Source: Prevotella melaninogenica
GTDB lineage: Bacteria > Bacteroidota > Bacteroidia > Bacteroidales > Bacteroidaceae
NCBI RefSeq assembly: GCF_018127925.1
Contig: NZ_CP072348.1
Location: 255,501-319,500, forward strand
DNA length: 64,000 bases
Direction of reading: 5' to 3'
The number at the start of each line of letters is the position of its first letter. Within the stretch, counting starts at the first letter, position 1. The translations under genes and the position numbers were made by a program. Positions 1,397 through 44,036 of this stretch are shown here, piece by piece. The notes under the pieces were generated by a model. That model searched no databases and was not told the origin of the DNA. It saw only the letters and a list, made by a program, of their open reading frames with translations.

Positions 1397-1555
<159 letters not shown>

Positions 1556-1926: not shown

Positions 1927-2133
1927 ATGAGAAAGAAACAAGAAAAGAAAGATTATTCTGCACCACGTTGCATGATAATCCAAGTAAGCGAAACCACTTA
2001 TTTGATGGACAGTTCTTTCCCTGGTCAGCACAACCCAGCTCAGTCAGGCGGAACCTTTGGTGATGCTAAGCAGGCTCCAAGCTGGATGACTGAAAGCGAA
2101 GAAGCAACAGAGCATTCTTCATGGGAAGACTAA
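1927..2133 (+). CDS. Small acidic conserved protein of cassette A (68 aa)
   Basis: A 68-residue protein with no family I recognise. It starts with a basic stretch (MRKKQEKK) and carries APRCMIIQVSE, SFPGQHNPAQ and an acidic end finishing SSWED. Near-identical copies stand at the same place in cassettes B and D; C has a diverged 70-residue homologue that keeps the AP-C-I-QVSE core, SQHNP and the AWED end. There is no signal peptide or lipobox. It begins about 370 bp after the leader ORF and ends 55 bp before the lipoprotein gene. Conservation over four copies, including protein-level substitutions (S/T, F/Y), argues that it is a real gene. Similar short acidic ORFs are common before Prevotella surface-protein genes. 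Confidence 0.75.
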   Translation: MRKKQEKKDYSAPRCMIIQVSETTYLMDSSFPGQHNPAQSGGTFGDAKQAPSWMTESEEATEHSSWED

Positions 2134-2188: not shown

Positions 2189-3757
2189 ATGAAAAAGAAA
2201 TTATTTAAGACCTGCCTGTTATCATTCGCAGCTTTCTGCGGGCTCACATTCTCGTTTGCATCCTGTGCCAATGAAGACGTAGCGCAGAACCCAAACAACA
2301 CAGATAACGATAAGAACCTGACGACCTTCACAGCGGGTGACCCTTCAACGCGCACCTCAATGGAGAGCGACGGCAAGTTCTTTTGGGAAGCAGGCGACAA
2401 GATTTGGGTAAAAGACGATGATGGTACATGGCAACAAAGCAGCAACGCCCCTACAGCAAAGACAGATAACTTTAAGTTCAAAGTGCCTGGCACTTACACA
2501 GCCCACACGTCATACGAGGTTTACTACCCAGGTAAGAATGGTAGTCAGGACCAAGTAACCATCTCTGCTAACCAGAGTCAAGCAGAGCCAAACACTACAG
2601 CTCACTTCGGTGCAGCAGGCGATTGCGGTATGGCAACAGCAACTAAAGTGCCAGGAAAACAGCAGTTCGCTTTTACCCTTGACCATAAGGCTGCATATCT
2701 CCTCTTCTTGCCACGCACGAGCAACACTGTTTTGCATAAATGTTACCTAACCAAAGTAGAGGTAAATTCTGACAATGATATTACCGATACTTACACCCTT
2801 GACCCAACAACAGGCGAACTCACAGGCACAGGTACAGGCAAGCAGATTGTTCTCACGACAAAGGGTAGCGGAACATTTGCTAACGGTTTTCCTTTAACGA
2901 ATAATGCAACAAGTGCCGCTACCAATGGTTCTTACGTAGTTATAAAGCCAGGCACCCATATACTCAAGATACGTTATTGGGTGAAAGACGTTGCAACAAA
3001 CGTAGAGGGAACAATAACCAAGACATTAGCATCAGCTACCTACGAACAAAACAAGTATTATAACATCACTGCAAACCTTAATGTACATGATTACGACGGC
3101 GACCATTATTACATGTGGGACGCCAGGAAACAATACTGGAAAGGTCACGAATGGTGGTCAGCCAATAAAGACCAGCCAGTGTTGAACGGTAACAGTAACG
3201 GCAACTACGCCCAGAGCAACGCTGACTCTCGTTACTACAACACAAGTTACCCAGGTTACGGCAAAAGCAACCCCGCTACTCACACATCATGCAAAGACCT
3301 TCCCAATGCTAACGAGCTGTCTTGGTATTGCATGTACGGCGATCCTCGTTGGGATGCAGACGAATTATGGACAACTATGGGTCATTTATATAAAGGTGGT
3401 ATGTGGTTTAAGAAGAAGTCCGTATTACAGACAGAGCATCATTACGACACCGAGAAATCTGCCGACGGTTCAACCGACTTGCGTACAACATACAAGCAAT
3501 ATAGGAACAGCAATAGTAGTATTAAAAACTCAGGCCTCCCTTCCGCCACCGATGCAGGTAATTACTTCTACCTGCCCGCCTTGGGTCAGTACGGCTCTGG
3601 TCAGCTGTACAGCGTTGGCTACACCGGCAACTATTGGTCGTCAAGTGCTTACCCGTTTAGCAGCGACGACGCGTACGGCCTGAGCTTCGGCAGTGGCATC
3701 GTCCTCGTGATCTTCGGCGGCCGCGACAACGGGTACAGGGTCGGCGGGTTCGAGTAG
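2189..3757 (+). CDS. Fimbrillin-like lipoprotein A with variable C-terminal domain
   Basis: A 522-residue exported lipoprotein. The signal peptide (MKKKLFKTCLLSF...) ends in the lipobox FASC with Cys26 as lipid anchor. Residues about 30-300 have the Thr/Ser/Gly-rich beta-sandwich look of fimbrillin/Mfa-like proteins (TFTAGDPSTRTSM, FWEAGDKIWVKDD, KFKVPG, VYYPG). From about 300 (HYYMWDA) a second domain begins with WYCMYGDPRWDADELW near 379-394 and ends in a C-type-lectin-like tail with YWSSSAYP, as in Fibrobacter-major-domain (TIGR02145-like) proteins. Residues 465-522 are the hypervariable segment. Paralogues are at 9081, 20192 and 41693. It probably sits on the outer surface; its ligand is unknown. 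Confidence 0.85.
   Translation: MKKKLFKTCLLSFAAFCGLTFSFASCANEDVAQNPNNTDNDKNLTTFTAGDPSTRTSMESDGKFFWEAGDKIWVKDDDGTWQQSSNAPTAKTDNFKFKVPGTYTAHTSYEVYYPGKNGSQDQVTISANQSQAEPNTTAHFGAAGDCGMATATKVPGKQQFAFTLDHKAAYLLFLPRTSNTVLHKCYLTKVEVNSDNDITDTYTLDPTTGELTGTGTGKQIVLTTKGSGTFANGFPLTNNATSAATNGSYVVIKPGTHILKIRYWVKDVATNVEGTITKTLASATYEQNKYYNITANLNVHDYDGDHYYMWDARKQYWKGHEWWSANKDQPVLNGNSNGNYAQSNADSRYYNTSYPGYGKSNPATHTSCKDLPNANELSWYCMYGDPRWDADELWTTMGHLYKGGMWFKKKSVLQTEHHYDTEKSADGSTDLRTTYKQYRNSNSSIKNSGLPSATDAGNYFYLPALGQYGSGQLYSVGYTGNYWSSSAYPFSSDDAYGLSFGSGIVLVIFGGRDNGYRVGGFE
3581..3757 (+). other. Candidate DGR-type variable region, cassette A
   Basis: From TTGGGT to the stop codon the four lipoprotein genes agree at silent sites but differ at the first two bases of many codons ending in C. 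Upstream of TTGGGT the copies differ at ordinary synonymous sites instead (ctgccc, ttgccc, ctacct, cttcct). This boundary and the NNC pattern fit adenine-directed mutagenesis of AAC codons copied from a template repeat. No template is found in the window. Confidence 0.65.
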
Positions 3758-4296: not shown

Positions 4297-4731
4297 ATGA
4301 AGATTAAACTTCAAAAGAAAAAGAATCCGCAAAAGCGGACGGAGGAAAAGTACTATGCTAATCCTGTAAATCTTGGTAAGAAGACCTTGCGAGACATTGC
4401 ACGCGACATTGCGGGGCGTTCTTCGCTGACACGTGGCGACATCGAAAACGTGCTGGCAAACTTTATGGATTGTCTGCCTCATTATCTCCGCGACGGCTTT
4501 AGCGTGCAGTTAGGAGAATTTGGCACGATGCGCCTGACATTGTCGAGCGAGGGAGCTGCGACGGAAAAGGCCTTTAAGACCGAGACGATTAAGCCACGCG
4601 TAACGTTTACGCCAGGTGTAGAGCTGAAAGCTGCGCTACGTGAGAACTCGTATGAAACAGTGAAGGAGGAAAAATCGGGCTCTGAGGAAGAAGGGGGCGG
4701 AAAGGGTCCCGGACCTTTGCCAGAAAGCTAA
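4297..4731 (+). CDS. HU-family DNA-binding protein of cassette A
   Basis: A 144-residue protein of the HU-related group (TIGR01201-like). It has a basic N-terminus (KIKLQKKKNPQKR), a helical dimer part with RDIAGRSSLTRGDIENVL at about 35-53, the HU-type turn QLGEFGTMRL at 71-80, and a flexible Gly/Pro/Glu tail from about 125. HU and IHF relatives bend DNA non-specifically or at structured sites. Its repeated placement directly after a palindrome array and a variable lipoprotein gene suggests a local role, such as recombination or transcription of the cassette; this is inference. The core is almost identical between copies, while the tail drifts. It ends about 40 bp before a strong terminator. 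Confidence 0.9.
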   Translation: MKIKLQKKKNPQKRTEEKYYANPVNLGKKTLRDIARDIAGRSSLTRGDIENVLANFMDCLPHYLRDGFSVQLGEFGTMRLTLSSEGAATEKAFKTETIKPRVTFTPGVELKAALRENSYETVKEEKSGSEEEGGGKGPGPLPES

Positions 4732-8290: not shown

Positions 8291-8725
8291 TTACTCTGGC
8301 ACAGGTCCTGGGCTGCCCCCTGTTTTAGGTGCAGGTTTAGCACTGAGGTGTTCTTCCTTCACCGTCTCATACGAGTTATCATGCAGAGCCGATTTTAGTT
8401 CTACGCCCGGTGTAAACGTTACGCGCGGCTTGATGGTTTCTGTCTTAAAAGCCTTTTCCGTTGCAGCCCCCTCGCTTGAAAGAGTCAGGCGCATCGTGCC
8501 AAACTCCCCCAACTGCACGCTAAAGCCATCGCGGAGATAATGAGGCAGACAGTCCATAAAGTTTGACAACACGTTTTCGATGTCACCACGTGTCAGCGAA
8601 GAACGTCCCGCAATGTCATGCGCAATATCTCGCAAGGTCTTCTTACCAAGATTTACAGGATTAGCATAGAACTTTTCCTCTGTCCGCTTCTGCGGATTCT
8701 TTTTCTTTTGGAGTTTAATCTTCAT
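8291..8725 (-). CDS. HU-family DNA-binding protein of cassette B
   Basis: A 144-residue HU-related protein, nearly identical to the cassette A copy over residues 1-125: basic start KIKLQKKKNPQKR, helix RDIAHDIAGRSSLTRGDI, beta-turn QLGEFGTMRL. The tail differs (EEHLSAKPAPKTGGSPGPVPE), showing that only the tail drifts freely. It lies downstream of lipoprotein B behind a palindrome array and before the GTTCGCGAAC palindromes. The family binds and bends DNA; a role special to the cassette is only suggested by its position in all four copies. Confidence 0.9.
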   Translation of the reverse strand: MKIKLQKKKNPQKRTEEKFYANPVNLGKKTLRDIAHDIAGRSSLTRGDIENVLSNFMDCLPHYLRDGFSVQLGEFGTMRLTLSSEGAATEKAFKTETIKPRVTFTPGVELKSALHDNSYETVKEEHLSAKPAPKTGGSPGPVPE

Positions 8726-9080: not shown

Positions 9081-9260
9081 CTACTGAAACGACTCTGCCC
9101 TGAACCCGTAGCCGCGGTAGCCGTAGCTGTACACGTAGACGTTACCACTGCCGAAGTACAGGGCGTACGCGCCGTTGCTGCTCCATGGGTAAGCACTTGA
9201 CGACCAATAGTAGCCGTAGTTGCCAACGTCTTTCAGCTGACCATAGTTGTAGTAACCCAA
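9081..9260 (-). other. Candidate DGR-type variable region, cassette B
   Basis: The last 60 codons, from TTGGGT to the stop. B is one codon longer than A, C and D, with an extra NNC codon in the tail. It is the most tyrosine-rich version (many TAC codons), as expected when AAC codons receive T at the first base. Constant blocks YYWSSSAYP, FGSG and the NNC columns align with the other copies. Confidence 0.65.
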
Positions 9261-10649
9261 GGCGGGCAAGTAGAAGTAATTGCCTGCGTCAGCGGCGGAA
9301 GGAAGGCCGGAGTTGTTGATACTACTGCTGTTGTTGTTATATTCCTTTCTTGTTGTACGCAGGTCGGTCGTACCGTCGGCAGATTTCTCGGTGTCGTAAT
9401 GATGCTCGGCTTGTAATACAGACTTCTTCTTAAACCACATGCCACCTTTATATAAATGCCCCATCGTTGTCCATAACTCGTCACCGTCCCAACGTGGATC
9501 ACCGTACATACAGTACCAAAACATCTCGTTAGCGTTAGGAAGACCTGCGCAAGTCTGGGTAGCATTGAAAGATGAACCGCTGCCCTCGTGATACCAACGA
9601 GAGTCAGTGTTGCTCTGGGCGTAGTTTGAAGAACTGTTGCCGTCGAGGGTTGGCTGACCAGTGTTTCCTGGCAGGTGCTTTGTCCATTCATAACCGTACC
9701 AATATTGATTCTGTGCATCCCACATGTAATAATGGTCGCCGTCGTAATTACGTACGTTAAGATTAGCAGTGACGTTGTAGTACTTGTTCTGATCGTAGGT
9801 AGCAGAAGGCAATGTCTTAGTTATTGTTCCCTCAACATTTGTTGCTATGTCCTTTACCCAATAACGTATTTTGAGGGTATGGGTACCTGGCTTTATAACA
9901 ACGTAAGAACCATTAGTAGCAGCACTTGTGCTAGTGTTGGTTAAAGGGAAACCATTAGCGTATGTTCCGCTACCCTTTGTCGTGAGAACAATCTGCTTAC
10001 CTGTACCTGTACCCGTGAGTTCGCCTGTTGCTGGGTTGAGGGTATATGTACTGGTAATGTCATCGTCTGAATTTACTTCTATCTTTGTCAAGTAGCAGTC
10101 ATGTAAGATAGTGTTACTGGTACGTGGCAAGAAGAGAAGGTAAGCAGCCTTGTGGTCGAGTGTGAAAGCAAATCCATTCTTTGAATTTGACCATGTGGCA
10201 TCTGCTATACCGCAATCACCTGATGTACCAAAATGAGCGGTAGTGTTGGGCTCTCCTTGGCTTTGGCTTCCAGCAATTGTAACTTGATCCTGATTGCCGC
10301 TCTGACCAGGGTAATAAACCTTATAGGTGCTGCTTTGTGTAAACTTACCAGGCACTTTAAACTTAAAGCTGGCAGTCTTTGCTGTAGGGGCGTTGCTGCT
10401 TTGTTGCCATGTACCATCATCGTCTTTTACCCAAATCTTATCGCCTGCTTCCCAAAAGAACTTGCCGTCGCTCTCCATTGAGGTACGAGTTGATGGGTCA
10501 CCTGCTGTAAAGGTTGTCAAGTTCTTGTCGTTATCTGTACTGTTTGGGTTCTGCGCTACGTCTTCATTGGCACAGGATGCAAACGCTAATGTGAACCCGC
10601 AGAAAGCTGCGAATGATAGCAGGCGGGTCTTAAATAATTCCTTTTTCAT
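9081..10649 (-). CDS. Fimbrillin-like lipoprotein B with variable C-terminal domain
   Basis: A 522-residue paralogue of the lipoprotein at 2189. Signal peptide MKKELFKTRLLSF with lipobox FASC (Cys26). The Thr-rich fimbrillin-like part (TFTAGDPSTRTSM, FWEAGDKIWVKDD) is almost the same as in A, with changes concentrated in the middle (FTQSSTYKVYYPGQSGNQ) and after MWDAQNQYW. The C-terminal lectin-like domain has WYCMYGDPRWDGDELW and ends with a tyrosine- and glycine-rich tail. The cassette is oriented against A, with 3.6 kb between the two HU genes. Probably surface-exposed; ligand unknown. Confidence 0.85.
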   Translation of the reverse strand: MKKELFKTRLLSFAAFCGFTLAFASCANEDVAQNPNSTDNDKNLTTFTAGDPSTRTSMESDGKFFWEAGDKIWVKDDDGTWQQSSNAPTAKTASFKFKVPGKFTQSSTYKVYYPGQSGNQDQVTIAGSQSQGEPNTTAHFGTSGDCGIADATWSNSKNGFAFTLDHKAAYLLFLPRTSNTILHDCYLTKIEVNSDDDITSTYTLNPATGELTGTGTGKQIVLTTKGSGTYANGFPLTNTSTSAATNGSYVVIKPGTHTLKIRYWVKDIATNVEGTITKTLPSATYDQNKYYNVTANLNVRNYDGDHYYMWDAQNQYWYGYEWTKHLPGNTGQPTLDGNSSSNYAQSNTDSRWYHEGSGSSFNATQTCAGLPNANEMFWYCMYGDPRWDGDELWTTMGHLYKGGMWFKKKSVLQAEHHYDTEKSADGTTDLRTTRKEYNNNSSSINNSGLPSAADAGNYFYLPALGYYNYGQLKDVGNYGYYWSSSAYPWSSNGAYALYFGSGNVYVYSYGYRGYGFRAESFQ

Positions 10650-10707: not shown

Positions 10708-10914
10708 TTAGTCTTCCCATGAAGAATGCTCGGTTGCTTCTTCGCTTTCTGTCATCCAACTTGGAGCCTGCTTGGCATCACCAGAGGTTCCGCCTGACTG
10801 GGCTGGGTTGTGCTGACCGGGGTAAGACGTGTCCATCAAATAAGTGGTTTCGCTTACTTGGATTATCATGCAACATGGGGCAGAATAATCCTTCTTTTCT
10901 TGTTTCTTTCTCAT
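10708..10914 (-). CDS. Small acidic conserved protein of cassette B (68 aa)
   Basis: Almost identical to the 68-residue protein of cassette A: basic start MRKKQEKK, core QVSETTYLMD, then SYPGQHNPAQSGG and the acidic end HSSWED. Differences from A are few (S/T, F/Y, R/C), mostly conservative. It ends 58 bp before the lipoprotein start and follows the long structured leader. No domain is recognised; there is no signal peptide. Confidence 0.75.
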   Translation of the reverse strand: MRKKQEKKDYSAPCCMIIQVSETTYLMDTSYPGQHNPAQSGGTSGDAKQAPSWMTESEEATEHSSWED

Positions 10915-11311: not shown

Positions 11312-11455
11312 CTAGGTGCGCCTGTGTGTGTGTGTGTGTGTGTGTGTTAGCAAAATATCTGAAACTACCAAATATAAAGCACTAAAAAAGGCAAAGAAAC
11401 TAAGATTTCTTTGCTGTGCTAAATTTATCTGATATGTCGTTGCTAATTTGTTCAC
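11312..11455 (-). CDS. Cassette B leader ORF with Thr-His repeat tail
   Basis: A 47-codon ORF from GTG (11455). The inner ATG of copies A, C and D is ACG here, so only the GTG start remains. The hydrophobic core FFAFFSALYLVVSDILL is kept. The AC tract has 12 units, which puts the end in another frame: the Thr-His repeats are followed by RRT and a TAG. No function is known; see the copy at 1397. Confidence 0.4.
   Translation of the reverse strand: MNKLATTYQINLAQQRNLSFFAFFSALYLVVSDILLTHTHTHTHRRT
11323..11347. repeat. (AC)12 microsatellite, cassette B
   Basis: Twelve AC units (TG on the plus strand) between GCTA and GGCGC of the leader ORF; four fewer than in cassettes A and C. Confidence 0.95.
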
Positions 11456-19416: not shown

Positions 19417-19575
<159 letters not shown>

Positions 19576-19930: not shown

Positions 19931-20143
19931 ATGATGAAAACAAAAGAAAGAAAAGTCTATCATGCGCCACAGTGCCAGATAGCACAAGTGAGTGAAGTAA
20001 CTTCTCTTATGTCTACCTCTTTCCCTAGTCAGCACAACCCAGGCCATCACGCTTCAGGTCCATCAAGTGCTAAAGCTGTAACAGAATGGGAAGACGTAGA
20101 TGTAGAGAGCGGTAAAGAAAGTTCTTCTGCATGGGAAGATTAA
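19931..20143 (+). CDS. Small acidic conserved protein of cassette C (70 aa)
   Basis: The diverged member of the four small proteins. It keeps the basic start (MMKTKERK), APQCQIAQVSEV, SFPSQHNPG and the end SSAWED, but has a different middle (HHASGPSSAKAVTEWEDVDVESG). The conserved parts show which residues matter: the A-P-x-C core, QVSE, QHNP and the terminal WED. It ends 48 bp before the lipoprotein gene. No known family, no signal peptide. Confidence 0.75.
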   Translation: MMKTKERKVYHAPQCQIAQVSEVTSLMSTSFPSQHNPGHHASGPSSAKAVTEWEDVDVESGKESSSAWED

Positions 20144-20191: not shown

Positions 20192-21781
20192 ATGAAAAAG
20201 AATTTATTTAAGACACGCCTGTTATCGTTCGCCGCTTTCTGCGGACTTGCGTTGGCTTTCGCATCGTGTGCCAATGAAGACGTAGCACAGGGCACAACTG
20301 GCACAGAGACTGATAACGATAAAAACCTCACTACCTTTGTTGCAGGTGATGAGGCTAAAACCCGTACCACAATGGATTACACCAGTGGTAATTTCTTTTG
20401 GGAGGCTGGCGACTATATCTATGTAAAGGACGACAACAACGTATGGCGCAAGAGTAGCAACGCTCCAACAGGTAAGGTTGCCTCTTTTAAGTTTAAGGTG
20501 CCTGGCAAGTTTACTGCAAGCGCCAGCTATAAGGTTTATTACCCTGGCAAGAACGGTAACAATGATCAGGTAACAATTCCAGCAGCTCAAAGCCAATCAG
20601 AGCCAAACAGCACCGCTCACTTTGGTGTGTCAGGCGACTGCGGAACAGCCACAGCAACAGGAACCGTAGGTGGTGGTTCATTCTCTTTTGCGCTTGATCA
20701 TCAAGCAGCCATCCTTGTTCTCCAGCCTTATAACCCAAACGCAACCTTAAATGATTGCTATCTGACGAAAGTTGAAGTAACTTCCGACAATAACATCACA
20801 GGAACTTACACGCTTGACCCATCAAGTGGCGAGCTTACCGGTACAGGTACAGGTAAACAGATTGTTGTTACAACATCAGGAAGCAGTACTTCGCCTAATG
20901 GTTTCCCAATAAAGAAAGTAGCCAGCGTAACAGATAACAGTGCTTATGTGCTTATCAAAGCGGGTACACATACGCTCACAGTAAAATACACCTTAAAAGA
21001 TATTGCCACCAATGTTGAGGGAACTATCACTAAGACCCTAAGTGCTTTCAATTACGACAAGAACACCTACTACGATATGACAGCCAATCTTGACATAAAG
21101 GATTACGACGGCGACCATTACTACATGTGGGATGCTCAGGAACAATATTGGAAAGGATTCGAATGGACAAAGAACTTGGCATCAGGTGTAGGCCAGCCAA
21201 CTCTCAGCCAAGGTCTTTCAGGCGCAACAACTTCCAGCAACTACGCTCAGAACAACACTGACTCACGTTACTACCACGAGGGCGGCGGTTCAGGTCGTTT
21301 CGATGCCACCCAGACTTGCGCAGGTCTTCCTAACGCTAACGAGATGTCTTGGTATTGCATGTACGGCGATCCTCGTTGGGATGCAGATGAATTATGGACT
21401 ACTATGGGTCATTTATATAAAGGTGGTATGTGGTTTAAGAAGAGGTCCGTGTTGATAGCAGAAGGTAAATACGACACTGAAATATCTGCAGATAATACAA
21501 CAGATTTACGTACAACACACAAGACTTATACCAACACCAGTAGCAGTATTAACTCTGGTGTTCCTTCTGATGCCGATCTAAGTAATTACTTTTATCTACC
21601 TGTCTTGGGTTACTACGACTCTGGTCAGCTGAACATCGTTGGCCTCGGCTGCGCCTATTGGGCGTCAAGTGCTCACCCGTTGGGTAGCGACGTCACGTAC
21701 GCCCTGTACTTCGAAAGTGGTATCGTCGCCGTGCAAAACTACTACCGCAGGCACGGGTTTAGGGCTGGGCAGTTCCAGTAG
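20192..21781 (+). CDS. Fimbrillin-like lipoprotein C with variable C-terminal domain
   Basis: The most diverged of the four lipoproteins (529 residues). Signal peptide MKKNLFKTRLLSF with lipobox FASC. The fimbrillin-like part begins TFVAGDEAKTRTTM and has FWEAGDYIYVKDD. The C-terminal domain has HYYMWDAQEQYW, then WYCMYGDPRWDADELWTTMGHLYKGGMWFKK, which is identical or nearly so in all copies. The tail from residue 472 is variable, with LGYYDSGQL and the altered constant block YWASSAHP. Like the small protein before it, this copy split off earlier than A, B and D. Probably surface-exposed. Confidence 0.85.
   Translation: MKKNLFKTRLLSFAAFCGLALAFASCANEDVAQGTTGTETDNDKNLTTFVAGDEAKTRTTMDYTSGNFFWEAGDYIYVKDDNNVWRKSSNAPTGKVASFKFKVPGKFTASASYKVYYPGKNGNNDQVTIPAAQSQSEPNSTAHFGVSGDCGTATATGTVGGGSFSFALDHQAAILVLQPYNPNATLNDCYLTKVEVTSDNNITGTYTLDPSSGELTGTGTGKQIVVTTSGSSTSPNGFPIKKVASVTDNSAYVLIKAGTHTLTVKYTLKDIATNVEGTITKTLSAFNYDKNTYYDMTANLDIKDYDGDHYYMWDAQEQYWKGFEWTKNLASGVGQPTLSQGLSGATTSSNYAQNNTDSRYYHEGGGSGRFDATQTCAGLPNANEMSWYCMYGDPRWDADELWTTMGHLYKGGMWFKKRSVLIAEGKYDTEISADNTTDLRTTHKTYTNTSSSINSGVPSDADLSNYFYLPVLGYYDSGQLNIVGLGCAYWASSAHPLGSDVTYALYFESGIVAVQNYYRRHGFRAGQFQ
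21605..21781 (+). other. Candidate DGR-type variable region, cassette C
   Basis: The last 59 codons including the stop. Although the rest of gene C is clearly diverged from A, B and D, silent positions in this segment are the same as in the others, so the segment has been homogenised. Variable codons keep the NNC form (atc, ctc, gcc, gtc, tac). Confidence 0.65.
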
Positions 21782-22256: not shown

Positions 22257-22691
22257 ATGAAGATTAAACTCCAAAAGAAAAAGAATCCGCAGAAGCGGAC
22301 AGAAGAAAAGTATTATGCTAATCCTGTAAATCTTGGGAAGAAGACCTTGCGGGATGTTGCGCGTGACATTGCAGGGCGTTCTTCGCTGACCCGTGGTGAC
22401 ATTGAGAACGTGCTGGCGAACTTTATGGATTGTCTGCCTCATTATCTCCGCGATGGTTTTAGCGTGCAGTTAGGCGAGTTTGGCACAATGCGCCTGACAC
22501 TGTCAAGCGAGGGGGCTGCGACGGTAAAGGCTTTCAAGACGGAGACGATCAAACCGCGCGTAACATTTACGCCAGGTGTGGAACTAAAGGCCGCTTTGCG
22601 CGAGAACTCGTATGAGACAGTGAAAGAGGAAAAATCGGGCTCTAAGGAAGAAGGGGGCGGAAAGACTCCCGGACCTTCGCCAGAAGGCTAA
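22257..22691 (+). CDS. HU-family DNA-binding protein of cassette C
   Basis: A 144-residue HU-related protein differing from the cassette A copy at a handful of residues (for example RDVARDIAG, TVKAFKTE, tail KEEGGGKTPGPSPEG), although the neighbouring lipoprotein is strongly diverged. Features are the same: basic arm, helix RDIAGRSSLTRGDIENVL-like, turn QLGEFGTMRL at 71-80, Gly/Pro tail. Slow change in the HU gene next to fast change in the lipoprotein indicates different selection on the two. Confidence 0.9.
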   Translation: MKIKLQKKKNPQKRTEEKYYANPVNLGKKTLRDVARDIAGRSSLTRGDIENVLANFMDCLPHYLRDGFSVQLGEFGTMRLTLSSEGAATVKAFKTETIKPRVTFTPGVELKAALRENSYETVKEEKSGSKEEGGGKTPGPSPEG

Positions 22692-40858: not shown

Positions 40859-41305
40859 CTACTCTGGCACTGGTCCAGGATTCTTTCCACTTCCCTCGTC
40901 TTTATGAGAAGGTTTTGGACTGGACTTTTCCTCCTTCACTGTTTCATACGAGTTATTACGCAGCGCAGCTTTCAGTTCTACACCTGGCGTAAACGTTACA
41001 CGTGGCTTAATCGTCTCGGTCTTAAAAGCCTTTTCCGTCGCAGTTCCCTCGCTTGATAATGTCAGGCGCATCGTGCCAAACTCGCCCAACTGCACGCTAA
41101 AGCCGTCACGAAGATAATGAGGCAGGCAATCCATAAAGTTTGCCAGCACGTTCTCAATGTCACCACGTGTCAGCGAAGAACGCCCCGCAATGTCATGCGC
41201 AATATCTCGCAGGGTCTTTTTCCCTACGTTCACAGGACTTGCATAAAACTTACCCGGTCCAGTCTTTGTACCCGGCTTTCTTCTTTCAATCAATTTGATT
41301 TTCAT
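40859..41305 (-). CDS. HU-family DNA-binding protein of cassette D
   Basis: A 148-residue HU-related protein. The core (KKTLRDIAHDIAGRSSLTRGD, QLGEFGTMRL) is the same as in the other copies, but the first 25 residues differ (MKIKLIERRKPGTKTGPGKFYASPVNVG) and the tail is KPSHKDEGSGKNPGPVPE. The 5' untranslated region also differs from copies A-C (tgcagcaacacg instead of aaatatttac). So D acquired another N-terminus and upstream region, perhaps by recombination with a further HU paralogue. Confidence 0.9.
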   Translation of the reverse strand: MKIKLIERRKPGTKTGPGKFYASPVNVGKKTLRDIAHDIAGRSSLTRGDIENVLANFMDCLPHYLRDGFSVQLGEFGTMRLTLSSEGTATEKAFKTETIKPRVTFTPGVELKAALRNNSYETVKEEKSSPKPSHKDEGSGKNPGPVPE

Positions 41306-41692: not shown

Positions 41693-41869
41693 CTACTCAA
41701 ACCCGCCGACCCTCATCCCGTAGTCGCGGGTGAAGCCGTTCACGCTGACGTTGCCACTGCCGAAGCCCAGGAAGTATGCGAGGGTGCGGCTCCCTGGGAA
41801 AGCACTTGACGACCAATAGTTGCCGCCGTCACGAATGTAGTACAGCTCACCAGAGTAGTAGTAACCCAA
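41693..41869 (-). other. Candidate DGR-type variable region, cassette D
   Basis: The last 59 codons including the stop, from TTGGGT to TAG. Variable NNC codons (tac, gac, ggc, aac, acc, ctc, ttc, agc) stand at the same columns as in A-C, and the constant blocks NYWSSSA and FGSGNV are shared. A codon such as gtt in A-C is att here, and ggc is cgt. Confidence 0.65.
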
Positions 41870-43258
41870 GGCAGGAAGGTAGAAGTAATTACCTGCATCG
41901 GCGGCGGAAGGGATGCCAGAGTTGTTGATACTATTGCTGCCGTTGATGTAGTACTTCCATGTTGTACGCAAGTCGGTTGAACCGTCGGCAGATTTCTCGG
42001 TGTCGTAATGATGCTCTGTCAGTAGAACAGACTTCTTCTTAAACCACATACCACCTTTATATAAATGACCCATAGTTGTCCATAATTCATCTGTATCCCA
42101 ACGTGGATCGCCGTACATGCAATACCAAGACAGCTCGTTAGCGTTTGGAAGGTCTTTGCATGATGCGTGAGTGGCATCGAAGCGACCTGAACCGCCGCCC
42201 TCGTGGTAGTAACGAGAGTCAGTGTTGCTCTTGGGGTAGTTTGGATTAGCTGGCTGTGTCGTAAGTGTTGGCTGCCATGGAGCTGCGCTATTCCATTCAT
42301 GACCTGCCCAATAATTCTGCTGAGCATCCCACATGTAATACTTTGTTCCGTCGTAATCACGTACATTAAGGTTTGCAGTGATATTATAATATTTGTTTTG
42401 GTCGTAGGTAGCTGATGATAATATCTTGGTTATAGTTCCCTCTACGTTTGTTGCAATGTCCTTCACCCAATAACGTATCTTGAGTGTATGGGTGCCTGGC
42501 TTTATAACTACGTAAGAACCATTGGTAGCGGCGCTTGTGGAGTTGTTAGTTAAAGGGAAACCGTTAGGGTATGCTCCGCTACCACCTGTTGAAACAATAA
42601 TTTGCTTACCTGTACCTGTGCCTGTGAGTTTGCCTGTTGTTGGGTCAAGGGTGTAAGTATCGGTAATATCATTGTCTGAATTTACCTCTACTTTGGTTAG
42701 GTAACAATTATGCAAAATAGTGTTGCTCGTGCGTGGCAAGAGGAGGAGATATGCAGCCTTATGGTCAAGGGTAAAAGCGAACTGCTGTTTTCCTGATACT
42801 TTAGTTGCTGTTGCCATACCGCAATCGCCTGCTGCACCGAAGTGAGATGTAGTGTTTGGCTCTGCTTGACTTTGAGAAGCAGTGATAACAGCTTGGTCAT
42901 TGCTACCGCCTTGACCTGGATAGTAAACCTCGTATGACGTGTGGGCTGTGTAAATGCCAGGCACTTTGAACTTAAAGTTATCTGTCTTACCTGTTGGTGA
43001 GTTACTACTTGCGTGCCATGCACCGTTATCGTCCTTTACATAAATCTTGTCGCCTGCTTCCCAAAAGAACTTGCCGTCGCTCTGCATTGAGGTGCGCGTT
43101 GAGGGGTCACCCGCTGTGAAGGTCGTCAGGTTCTTGTCGTTATCTGTGTTGTTTGGGTTCTGCACTACGTCTTCATTAGCACAGGATGCAAACGCGAATG
43201 TGAGCCCGCAGAAAGCTGCGAATGAAAGCAAGCGGGTCTTGAATAATTTCTTTTTCAT
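41693..43258 (-). CDS. Fimbrillin-like lipoprotein D with variable C-terminal domain
   Basis: About 521 residues from the ATG at 43258, which gives the same MKKKLFKTRLLSF signal peptide and FASC lipobox as the other copies; the frame stays open further upstream but has no conserved start there. The fimbrillin-like part is close to A (TSYEVYYPGQGGSNDQ, FGAAGDCGMATATK). The C-terminal domain holds WYCMYGDPRWDTDELW and ends in a variable tail with NYWSSSAFPGS. It shares the GGFE end with A, while B and C end in F-Q. Mosaic similarity between copies suggests past exchange. Probably surface-exposed. Confidence 0.85.
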   Translation of the reverse strand: MKKKLFKTRLLSFAAFCGLTFAFASCANEDVVQNPNNTDNDKNLTTFTAGDPSTRTSMQSDGKFFWEAGDKIYVKDDNGAWHASSNSPTGKTDNFKFKVPGIYTAHTSYEVYYPGQGGSNDQAVITASQSQAEPNTTSHFGAAGDCGMATATKVSGKQQFAFTLDHKAAYLLLLPRTSNTILHNCYLTKVEVNSDNDITDTYTLDPTTGKLTGTGTGKQIIVSTGGSGAYPNGFPLTNNSTSAATNGSYVVIKPGTHTLKIRYWVKDIATNVEGTITKILSSATYDQNKYYNITANLNVRDYDGTKYYMWDAQQNYWAGHEWNSAAPWQPTLTTQPANPNYPKSNTDSRYYHEGGGSGRFDATHASCKDLPNANELSWYCMYGDPRWDTDELWTTMGHLYKGGMWFKKKSVLLTEHHYDTEKSADGSTDLRTTWKYYINGSNSINNSGIPSAADAGNYFYLPALGYYYSGELYYIRDGGNYWSSSAFPGSRTLAYFLGFGSGNVSVNGFTRDYGMRVGGFE

Positions 43259-43317
43259 TGTCTGTTTCTTCTTTTTGTGTGATTTTGTTTTCTTTACTTG
43301 GTTAATAACTCTCTCTG

Positions 43318-43524
43318 TTAGTCTTCCCATGAAGAATGCTCTGTCTCTTCTTCACTTTCTGTCATCCAGTTTGGAGCCTGCTTGGCATCACCAAAACTTC
43401 CGCCTGGCTGGGCTGGATTGTGCTGACCGGGGTAAGACGTGTCCATCAAATAAGTGGTTTCGCTTACTTGGATTATCATGCAACGTGGTGCAGAATAATC
43501 CTTCTTTTCTTGTTTCTTTCTCAT
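43318..43524 (-). CDS. Small acidic conserved protein of cassette D (68 aa)
   Basis: Nearly identical to the copies in cassettes A and B: MRKKQEKK, QVSETTYLMD, SYPGQHNPAQPGG, the acidic end ESEEETEHSSWED. Differences are single residues (PGGSFG, APNW, EE for EA). It ends 59 bp before the lipoprotein start. No recognised domain. Confidence 0.75.
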   Translation of the reverse strand: MRKKQEKKDYSAPRCMIIQVSETTYLMDTSYPGQHNPAQPGGSFGDAKQAPNWMTESEEETEHSSWED

Positions 43525-43898: not shown

Positions 43899-44036
43899 CT
43901 AGGTGCGCCTGTGTGTGTGTGTGTGTGTTAGCAAAATATCTGAGACTACCAAATATAAAGCTCTAAAAAAGGCAAAGAAATCAAAGTTTCTTTGCTGTGC
44001 TGGATTGGTCTGATATGTCATTGCTAATTGTTTCAC
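43899..44036 (-). CDS. Cassette D leader ORF with Thr-His repeat tail
   Basis: A 45-codon ORF from GTG (44036) or ATG (44021), beginning VKQLAMTYQTNPAQQ and keeping FFAFFRALYLVVSDILL. The AC tract has only nine units, so the Thr-His run is the shortest, and the end is RRT then TAG, in the same register as copy B. Function unknown. Confidence 0.4.
   Translation of the reverse strand: MKQLAMTYQTNPAQQRNFDFFAFFRALYLVVSDILLTHTHTHRRT
43910..43928. repeat. (AC)9 microsatellite, cassette D
   Basis: Nine AC units on the minus strand, the shortest of the four tracts (16, 12, 16, 9). Confidence 0.95.

What the first reader, a model, noticed from the sequence alone, without database searches (positions are those of the whole stretch)
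3581..3757. DGR-like variable regions in four paralogous lipoproteins, with no reverse transcriptase in the window
The last ~59 codons of the genes at 2189, 9081, 20192 and 41693 were compared by hand. At many columns the third base is fixed at C while the first two vary: agc/gac/atc/tac; tac/aac/ctc/gac; aac/tac/gcc/aac; gac/ggc/gtc/ctc; agc/tac/tac/ggc; ctc/tac/gcc/agc; ttc/agc/aac/ggc. Constant columns (tat tgg, agt gct, ctg, gtg, agg) are identical even at silent sites. This is what adenine-specific mutagenesis of AAC codons in a template repeat gives, and the fold (C-type-lectin-like tail with YWSSS) is that of known DGR targets. A few third-base differences (cag, aaa, caa, gaa, cgt) do not fit simple A-to-N change at AAC codons. 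The machinery would have to act in trans.
Basis: partly seen in the sequence, partly recalled or inferred. Interest (0 to 1): 0.92.

Follow-up and report, generated by a model that had tools for sequence, protein, structure and literature searches.

The report
Surface-protein repertoire without its mutator
This Prevotella genome carries more than forty copies of a pilus-like surface protein whose tips look scrambled by a known mutation machine (a diversity-generating retroelement), yet the machine itself was not found in the assembled genome, so this looks like a large repertoire left behind by, or supplied by, a mutator kept elsewhere.

Summary
The four lipoproteins belong to a family with 49 matches in the genome; 43 were aligned. 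Near the C-terminus 21-22 NNC codons vary at bases 1 and 2 much as independent draws, while third bases and silent sites of constant codons stay nearly fixed in the best-kept copies. A template predicted from these VRs led to real template repeats beside DGR reverse transcriptases in other Prevotella; the closest (G005) has AAC/AAT at 18 of 21 variable columns and a full-length homologous target. So the VRs are very probably DGR-written. The machine was not found here: the three RTs are retron-like, Drt3a and Drt3b; no template repeat, no Avd. One further target keeps its place but lacks the cassette it has in P. vespertina and P. jejuni. The genes form a dispersed unit with an HU gene (42 of 43), with 2-16 family matches in eight relatives against 47 here. 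Leftover targets are known in Treponema denticola (2-6 genes). Whether the writer was lost or lives elsewhere is open.

The parts
2189..3757 (+). VR lipoprotein A (522 aa): lipobox (by eye), pilin-like N-terminal domain, C-terminal VR
   Evidence: fold modelled on B
3566..3754 (+). variable region of A
   Evidence: (copy L019: 7/114 changes at constant sites, 0/21 third bases not C)
4297..4731 (+). HU-HIG DNA-binding protein of unit A
1927..2133 (+). conserved 68-aa small ORF of unit A, no Pfam match
1505..1536 (+). (AC)16 microsatellite in the conserved leader of unit A
9081..10649 (-). VR lipoprotein B (522 aa)
   Evidence: model
9084..9275 (-). variable region of B
   Evidence: (L004: 4/114, 1/21)
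8291..8725 (-). HU-HIG protein of unit B
10708..10914 (-). conserved 68-aa small ORF of unit B
11323..11346 (-). (AC)12 microsatellite of unit B
20192..21781 (+). VR lipoprotein C (529 aa)
21590..21778 (+). variable region of C
   Evidence: (L022: 13/114, 4/21)
22257..22691 (+). HU-HIG protein of unit C
19931..20143 (+). conserved 70-aa small ORF of unit C
19525..19556 (+). (AC)16 microsatellite of unit C
41693..43330 (-). VR lipoprotein D (545 aa as an ORF; likely start 24 codons further in, by comparison with A-C)
41696..41884 (-). variable region of D
   Evidence: (L026: 12/114, 0/21)
40859..41305 (-). HU-HIG protein of unit D
43910..43927 (-). (AC)9 microsatellite of unit D

Best explanation
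The window holds 4 of about 43-46 chromosomal targets of a diversity-generating retroelement (DGR). Each is a pilin-like lipoprotein whose last ~60 codons were overwritten, copy by copy, by mutagenic retrohoming from one kind of template repeat with AAC at about 20 codons; template adenines became any base, the rest was copied faithfully. Shown: the pattern, the near-independence of copies, and TR+Avd+RT cassettes with homologous targets in the genus. Inferred: the writer acted in trans on the copies after they had duplicated and was then most likely lost from this lineage, leaving a standing repertoire of fixed binders whose older VRs now decay by ordinary mutation. The proteins probably sit at the cell surface, perhaps at pilus tips, and bind varied ligands (inferred from the fold of the N-terminal part and from DGR targets in general). 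My split: DGR-written 0.93; given that, writer lost from the cell line about 0.7 against supplied from outside (rival 1).
For: (1) Hypervariable bases 1+2 resemble independent draws over 903 pairs, while e.g. L005/L017 agree at 99.1% of VR constant sites with 68% backbone identity. (2) In the 20 best-kept copies 379 of 419 hypervariable third bases are C. (3) The hypervariable columns were fixed before any TR was seen; the TR of G005 has AAC/AAT at 18 of 21 of them and at 2 of the 37 other columns (Fisher 4.8e-10). Entropy of our 20 best-kept VRs is 1.31 bits at its A sites against 0.38, 0.36 and 0.15 at C, G and T; over all 43 it is 1.52 against 0.97, 0.75 and 0.45 (columns paired by hand). 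(4) That TR lies between an Avd-like gene (bAvd 39.0 bits, cut-off 40) and the RT, next to a target 37% identical to window protein B over 487 aligned positions. (5) In one search, 24 of 200 genomes, ours included, had a DNA match to the predicted TR; in 11 of the 24 one match lies just upstream of an RT found or 51 (coordinates compared by eye; two read in full). (6) A second target, the 909-aa gene of our genome, differs from the P. vespertina TR at 25 of 47 A and 12 of 127 other sites, and the cassette beside it in that species is missing here between flanks 85% and 90% identical. (7) Codon identity at constant residues, between 12 well-kept copies of ours and 8 of other species, is 0.90-0.97 in the VR and 0.51-0.65 in the backbone (copies were chosen partly for clean VRs, which favours this).
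Against: No exact TR for the lipoprotein VRs was found: not in this genome, not among the matches in 8 other genomes, where the only TRs seen are those of G005 and of the 909 type in P. jejuni and P. vespertina, nor in plasmid, phage or viral collections. The closest TR (G005) matches the predicted one at 83%. Over all 43 copies 262 of 901 hypervariable third bases are not C, and 68 of 944 residues are K, E, Q, M or W. Well-kept VRs also occur in genomes without any RVT_1 match (G122, G026), awkward for a single old loss; and RT-bearing P. vespertina has mostly decayed lipoprotein VRs, so VR freshness does not follow RT presence. The C-type-lectin fold was not confirmed.
Confidence: 0.7

Rival explanations
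1. The writer is not lost but external: a mobile or population-carried DGR (plasmid, phage, conjugative element, or RT-bearing cells exchanging DNA) rewrites or donates VRs in several oral Prevotella species in trans.
For: Well-kept VRs occur in genomes without a DGR RT: P. veroralis 2/114 and 0/21, G146 6/114 and 1/21, G122 8/114 with 1/21 and 8/114 with 2/21; G122 and G026 (P. veroralis) have no RVT_1 match at all. Constant-site codons are shared across species beyond the backbone (copies chosen partly for clean VRs). RTs of this kind lie within 1.1 kb of the TR-peptide match on 12 of 12 IMG/VR contigs, and a related RT sits on a Segatella plasmid.
Against: No copy of the needed TR in viral, plasmid or phage collections. 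A resident TR can be conserved too: P. jejuni and P. vespertina TRs differ at 12 of 174 sites while RT DNA is 81% identical, so shared constant sites do not prove transfer. The plasmid and IMG/VR RTs are only 37-48% identical to the P. jejuni RT.
Confidence: 0.25
2. No retroelement: ordinary duplication followed by strong diversifying selection on binding-site codons.
For: Surface proteins do diverge fast at binding sites; K, E, Q, M and W make up 68 of 944 hypervariable residues, which pure NNC would not give.
Against: Silent sites in the same stretch are more conserved than in the backbone; bases 1+2 saturate with the third base fixed in well-kept copies; TRs with A at the same columns exist.
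Confidence: 0.03
3. Gene conversion among paralogues shuffles a fixed set of VR alleles (as in pilin antigenic variation).
For: Backbones look mosaic: e.g. L022/L023 0.90 in the backbone but 0.63 in the next block.
Against: No excess sharing at hypervariable sites between copies against shuffled columns; tract exchange would carry hypervariable and constant sites together.
Confidence: 0.03
4. One of the three resident RTs (retron-like, Drt3a, Drt3b) writes the VRs.
For: The 441-aa retron-like RT is also in G146, G132, G124, G315 and P. jejuni.
Against: Best PADLOC matches are retron types XI/XII, Drt3a and Drt3b; the retron-like RT has QGFATSP where the P. jejuni RT has LPIGDLTSQ; neither it nor any other RVT_1 match is in G122 and G026, which have well-kept VRs; no TR was found here to copy.
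Confidence: 0.02

Closest known systems
Leftover DGR targets in Treponema denticola (PMC4891356; passages and section 10 read)
   Same: Scattered targets, many of them lipoproteins, with A-biased VRs; 8 listed isolates have 0 TR and 0 RT but 2-6 targets, read there as leftovers of lost core DGRs.
   Different: There up to 7 targets per genome; here 43 aligned copies, nearly all followed by an HU gene, with a decay gradient and empty sites in relatives for the two units tested.
Bacteroidetes-type DGR lipoprotein target, Mfa2 plus Fib_succ_major (PMC4159848; passages read)
   Same: Pilin/anchor-like lipoprotein with a C-terminal variable domain.
   Different: Found on a stool metagenome contig; no family of this size in the passages seen.
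Thiohalocapsa PB-PSB1 DGRs (PMC10907252; passages read)
   Same: Incomplete and remote loci, trans activity, 15 targets, RT-bearing structural variants in the population.
   Different: RTs are present in that genome; the targets are linked to defence sensors.
P. jejuni / P. vespertina DGR cassette (this work, L171, L139)
   Same: Target + accessory gene + Avd + TR + RT; the orthologous target survives in our genome.
   Different: Its TR codes a different constant frame (YWSAVP), so it does not explain the lipoprotein VRs (YWSSSA).
Remnant TR-VR homology without RT in cyanobacteria (PMC7517822; passages read)
   Same: Dispersed paralogues of a variable protein, one with TR-VR remnant and no RT nearby.
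   Different: Three paralogues, not dozens.
Multi-VR DGRs of Yan et al. 2019 (PMC6642488; passages and section 13 read)
   Same: Many VRs per TR.
   Different: The 91-pair case is called atypical there, with few A changes, its merged VRs lying in one giant adhesin.

Membership tests
DGR (complete element) | DGR-clade reverse transcriptase in the genome | tested here: not met
   Three RVT_1 matches: retron-like and Drt3a, Drt3b. A P. vespertina DGR RT finds nothing at E<=10 while ringing in P. vespertina, P. jejuni and G005; P. jejuni RT none at 1e-30
DGR (complete element) | template repeat matching the VRs | tested here: not met
   Of 40 scored DNA matches (of 43 candidates) the 33 at E<=0.011 lie in VR genes, the other 7 are short with E>=0.25; 49 of 49 peptide matches lie in long ORFs, while the same peptide finds TRs in G005, G200 and G201
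DGR (complete element) | Avd accessory protein | tested here: not met
   One weak match to the Avd model (25 bits, cut-off 80), far better as 23S_rRNA_IVP (138 bits) than bAvd (27.6, cut-off 40). Avd genes of the relatives also miss the NCBIfam cut-off (49 and 42 bits), so that model is not sensitive here; a bAvd search of the whole genome was not run
DGR target (variable protein) | VR differing from a TR mainly at template adenines | tested here: met
   Only against TRs of relatives; no TR of the same species available
DGR target (variable protein) | C-terminal VR with conserved scaffold between variable codons | tested here: met
DGR target (variable protein) | C-type-lectin (or Ig) fold of the variable domain | tested here: inconclusive
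DGR target (variable protein) | IMH / GC-rich hairpin next to the VR | tested here: inconclusive
   Strict GC hairpin within 90 nt in 11 of 49, and 4 of the 6 in the window; none seen beside VR/TR of three RT-bearing relatives
DGR target (variable protein) | ongoing VR change in a population | not testable with these tools
   No second strain or reads of this species at hand
Type V pilin (FimA/Mfa-like) superfamily | N-terminal fold | tested here: met

The most novel reading that the evidence does not exclude
A DGR that is not resident: one travelling or population-carried template and RT writes, in trans, dozens of remote surface-protein targets in several oral Prevotella species whose genomes keep only the targets. 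The sORF-lipoprotein-HU unit multiplies in the genome to enlarge the library, and microsatellites in its leader may choose which copy is expressed.
Probability: 0.25. Interest if true: 0.9.

Novelty: new variant of a known kind. Interest (0 to 1): 0.72.

Why it matters
It would be among the largest DGR-written protein repertoires known to me in one genome, and it stands there without its writer. The spread from almost clean to badly decayed VRs gives a way to date when writing stopped. It makes testable whether a bacterium can live off a library of pre-made binders, or receives diversification from outside. A large DGR survey says that its method would not detect remote targets (PMC8144416, passages), so such cases can be overlooked.

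Tried and rejected
Rejected: resident RTs as writers; the Avd-like match of this genome; gene conversion within VRs; a TR hidden in the genome. Led nowhere: exact VR 18-mer in viral contigs; TR in plasmids and phages; P. jejuni RT in viral contigs. The IMG/VR loci found with the TR peptide carry an RT within 1.1 kb of the match in 12 of 12; in the six whose ORFs I listed the targets, where shown, look by eye like tail proteins and the repeats are other ones. A 66-codon VR-like fragment in G132 is a broken relative of the lipoprotein, not a TR, judging by the ORFs beside it. I first leaned to a mobile TR because constant sites match across species; one search shows that resident TRs can be that conserved, so I lowered it. 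The hairpin as homing signal stays unproven. In one search two of the 19 ORFs scored (L078_1_5459, L072_1_15081) were not, or not clearly, family VRs, and L076 and L147 are the same gene; other P. vespertina VRs scored 21/114 with 12/21, 15/114 with 3/21, 25/114 with 10/21, 29/108 with 15/20, 18/114 with 2/21 and 2/111 with 2/21; H. enoeca 13/114 with 1/19 and 28/114 with 5/20; P. jejuni 6/114 with 3/21, 4/114 with 1/21 and 13/114 with 1/21. Whole-model and domain fold comparisons list no C-type-lectin match (the Foldseek search of the domain itself, did not run); this excludes nothing. Profile search of solved structures with the C-terminal alignment: none at E<=10. Paper searches showed no report of this repertoire, judged from the listed titles and abstract starts, in an open-licence library.

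Full report

The pattern. By entropy, 22 columns near the C-terminus vary at codon bases 1 and 2; 21 were kept for later counts. Over the 903 pairs of copies, identity at these bases is 0.33 on average, equal to the column expectation; it is 0.316 for the 10 pairs with backbone identity 0.85-0.90 and 0.328 for the 210 pairs under 0.60, with a weak overall rank correlation of 0.10. Shuffling columns gives the same spread and maximum. In contrast the constant codons of the same stretch are close to identical among the best-kept copies: L005 and L017 share 99.1% of VR constant sites but 68% of the backbone. So copies appear to have been written separately, after the genes had diverged, from a common source that varies only at set sites. 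A gradient runs from 3 to 47 changes in 114 constant sites and from 0 to 18 non-C third bases in 21 columns, the two correlating (Spearman 0.83): older VRs decay.

The template. From our VRs alone I wrote a guess of the template and searched 200 same-genus genomes: 24, ours included, had a DNA match (at most four candidates per genome were scored). The BPP-1 RT as query and a Prevotella RT place an RT just downstream of one match in 11 of the 24 (G003, G005, G066, G067, G099, G117, G125, G129, G142, G173, G177; coordinates compared by eye). I read two in full. In G005 the order is target, accessory gene, Avd-like gene, TR, RT; its TR codes LPALGNYNNGTLNNVGTNGNYWSSSPNPGNADNAYNLNFNSGEVNVNNNNRNNGYVAG and has AAC/AAT at 18 of 21 hypervariable columns and 2 of 37 others. 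The adjacent target is a full-length relative of window protein B, 37% identical. The G005 TR and its VR differ at 28 A sites and, in an ungapped comparison that slips near the end, at 24 others, so I do not use that pair as a test. This cassette is the strongest support for the DGR reading.

The missing machine. Here there are three RVT_1 matches: a 441-aa retron-like RT, a Drt3a and a Drt3b (588 bits). A P. vespertina DGR RT matches nothing here even at E<=10, while ringing in P. jejuni, P. vespertina and G005. No template was found by DNA or by peptide, though the same peptide finds TRs in three relatives. The one Avd-like match is a 23S_rRNA_IVP protein by score. At C2 ~125 kb our genome keeps the 909-aa target that in P. 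vespertina and P. jejuni heads a cassette with an open RT frame (the stop noted for the P. jejuni match is the end of that frame). Here the cassette is absent and the 909 gene is followed by the HU gene. Our 909-gene VR departs from the P. vespertina TR at 25 of 47 A sites and 12 of 127 others; the P. vespertina VR at 18 and 2; in P. jejuni 25 of 26 TR-VR differences are at A. Absence here could mean loss here or gain there; the A-biased VR of our copy favours loss. That TR differs in its constant frame from the lipoprotein VRs, so the lipoproteins need another TR, not seen in this clade.

The unit and its spread. The four window units share a leader, a small ORF (located in three of four), the lipoprotein and an HU-HIG gene. 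Genome-wide 42 of 43 core genes, and 46 of 49 in all, have a same-strand HU-like gene 205-690 bp downstream (four further subtypes match HU-HIG). The only four (AC)n runs of 16 bases or more in the window lie 580-674 bp upstream of the four genes. Units A and B are absent from the matching places in G132, G146 and G315 (in G315 the gap at B is longer; C and D not tested). With the VR peptide at E<=0.001 our genome has 47 matches against 2, 3 and 3 in G132, G146 and G315, 6 in G122 and in G005, and 7, 13 and 16 in P. veroralis, P. vespertina and P. jejuni (drafts may hide copies, and the counts of G005, P. vespertina and P. jejuni include a TR). So the family has multiplied in this lineage, or shrunk in the others.

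Lost or external. Well-kept VRs also occur in genomes without a DGR RT: P. veroralis 2/114 and 0/21, G146 6/114 and 1/21, G122 8/114 twice; G122 and G026, with G383 and G316, are the 4 of 17 genomes with no RVT_1 match at all. On the other side, RT-bearing P. vespertina has mostly decayed lipoprotein VRs. At constant residues, codon identity with our copies is 0.90-0.97 in VRs and 0.51-0.65 in backbones (12 of our 43 copies and 8 of the 19 relatives' ORFs, chosen partly for clean VRs). This suggests that VRs in several species were written rather recently from similar templates. Either the writer was lost several times, or it comes from outside. The latter is not required: the P. jejuni and P. 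vespertina TRs differ at only 12 of 174 sites while the RT DNA is 81% identical, so a resident TR also stays conserved. Viral, plasmid and phage collections gave no match to the needed TR. I keep loss as the leading reading and the external writer as the main rival.

Known and new. T. denticola isolates without RT and TR keep 2-6 targets (PMC4891356, section 10), so leftover targets are known. Thiohalocapsa PB-PSB1 has 15 targets, trans activity and RT-bearing variants in the population (PMC10907252, passages). A lipoprotein target with a pilin-anchor domain is known from a stool metagenome (PMC4159848, passages). What is new here, as far as I saw, is the size of the repertoire, its spread as a unit with an HU gene, and well-kept VRs in several RT-less genomes. 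The identity of G003 with P. vespertina and of G026 with P. veroralis rests on equal contig lengths; that G146 is a P. melaninogenica is my recollection of a chromosome length. The genome may hold masked stretches that no search here could see.

Noticed in passing
window 1505-1536, 11323-11346, 19525-19556, 43910-43927: The only four (AC)n microsatellites of 16+ bases in the window each lie in the leader of a VR unit, with 16, 12, 16 and 9 repeats; slip-strand switching of expression is possible.
   Followed up: partly
window 4297-4731, 8291-8725, 22257-22691, 40859-41305: An HU-HIG DNA-binding gene follows nearly every VR lipoprotein genome-wide (42 of 43); role unknown.
   Followed up: partly
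window 3778, 9041, 21802, 41653: GC hairpin (8-bp stem, 4-base loop) just after the stop of each of the four VR genes; 4 of 6 such hairpins in the window. Some other copies show different downstream inverted repeats by eye.
   Followed up: partly
L001 (G000:C2:1522703-1526293): 441-aa retron-like RT with a hydrophobic C-terminal tail, of the same length in five relatives; possibly a conserved defence gene.
   Followed up: partly
L002/L003 (G000:C1 ~524-527 kb): Drt3a and Drt3b side by side, likely a DRT3 anti-phage pair.
   Followed up: partly
L210-L221 (IMG/VR contigs): DGR-type RTs 39-48% identical to the P. jejuni RT near repeats of YWS type; in the six listed, targets look like tail proteins by eye where shown.
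   Followed up: partly
L222 (Segatella hominis 317-kb plasmid NZ_CP137560.1): RT 37% identical to the P. jejuni DGR RT on a plasmid of a related genus; TR and target not examined.
   Followed up: no
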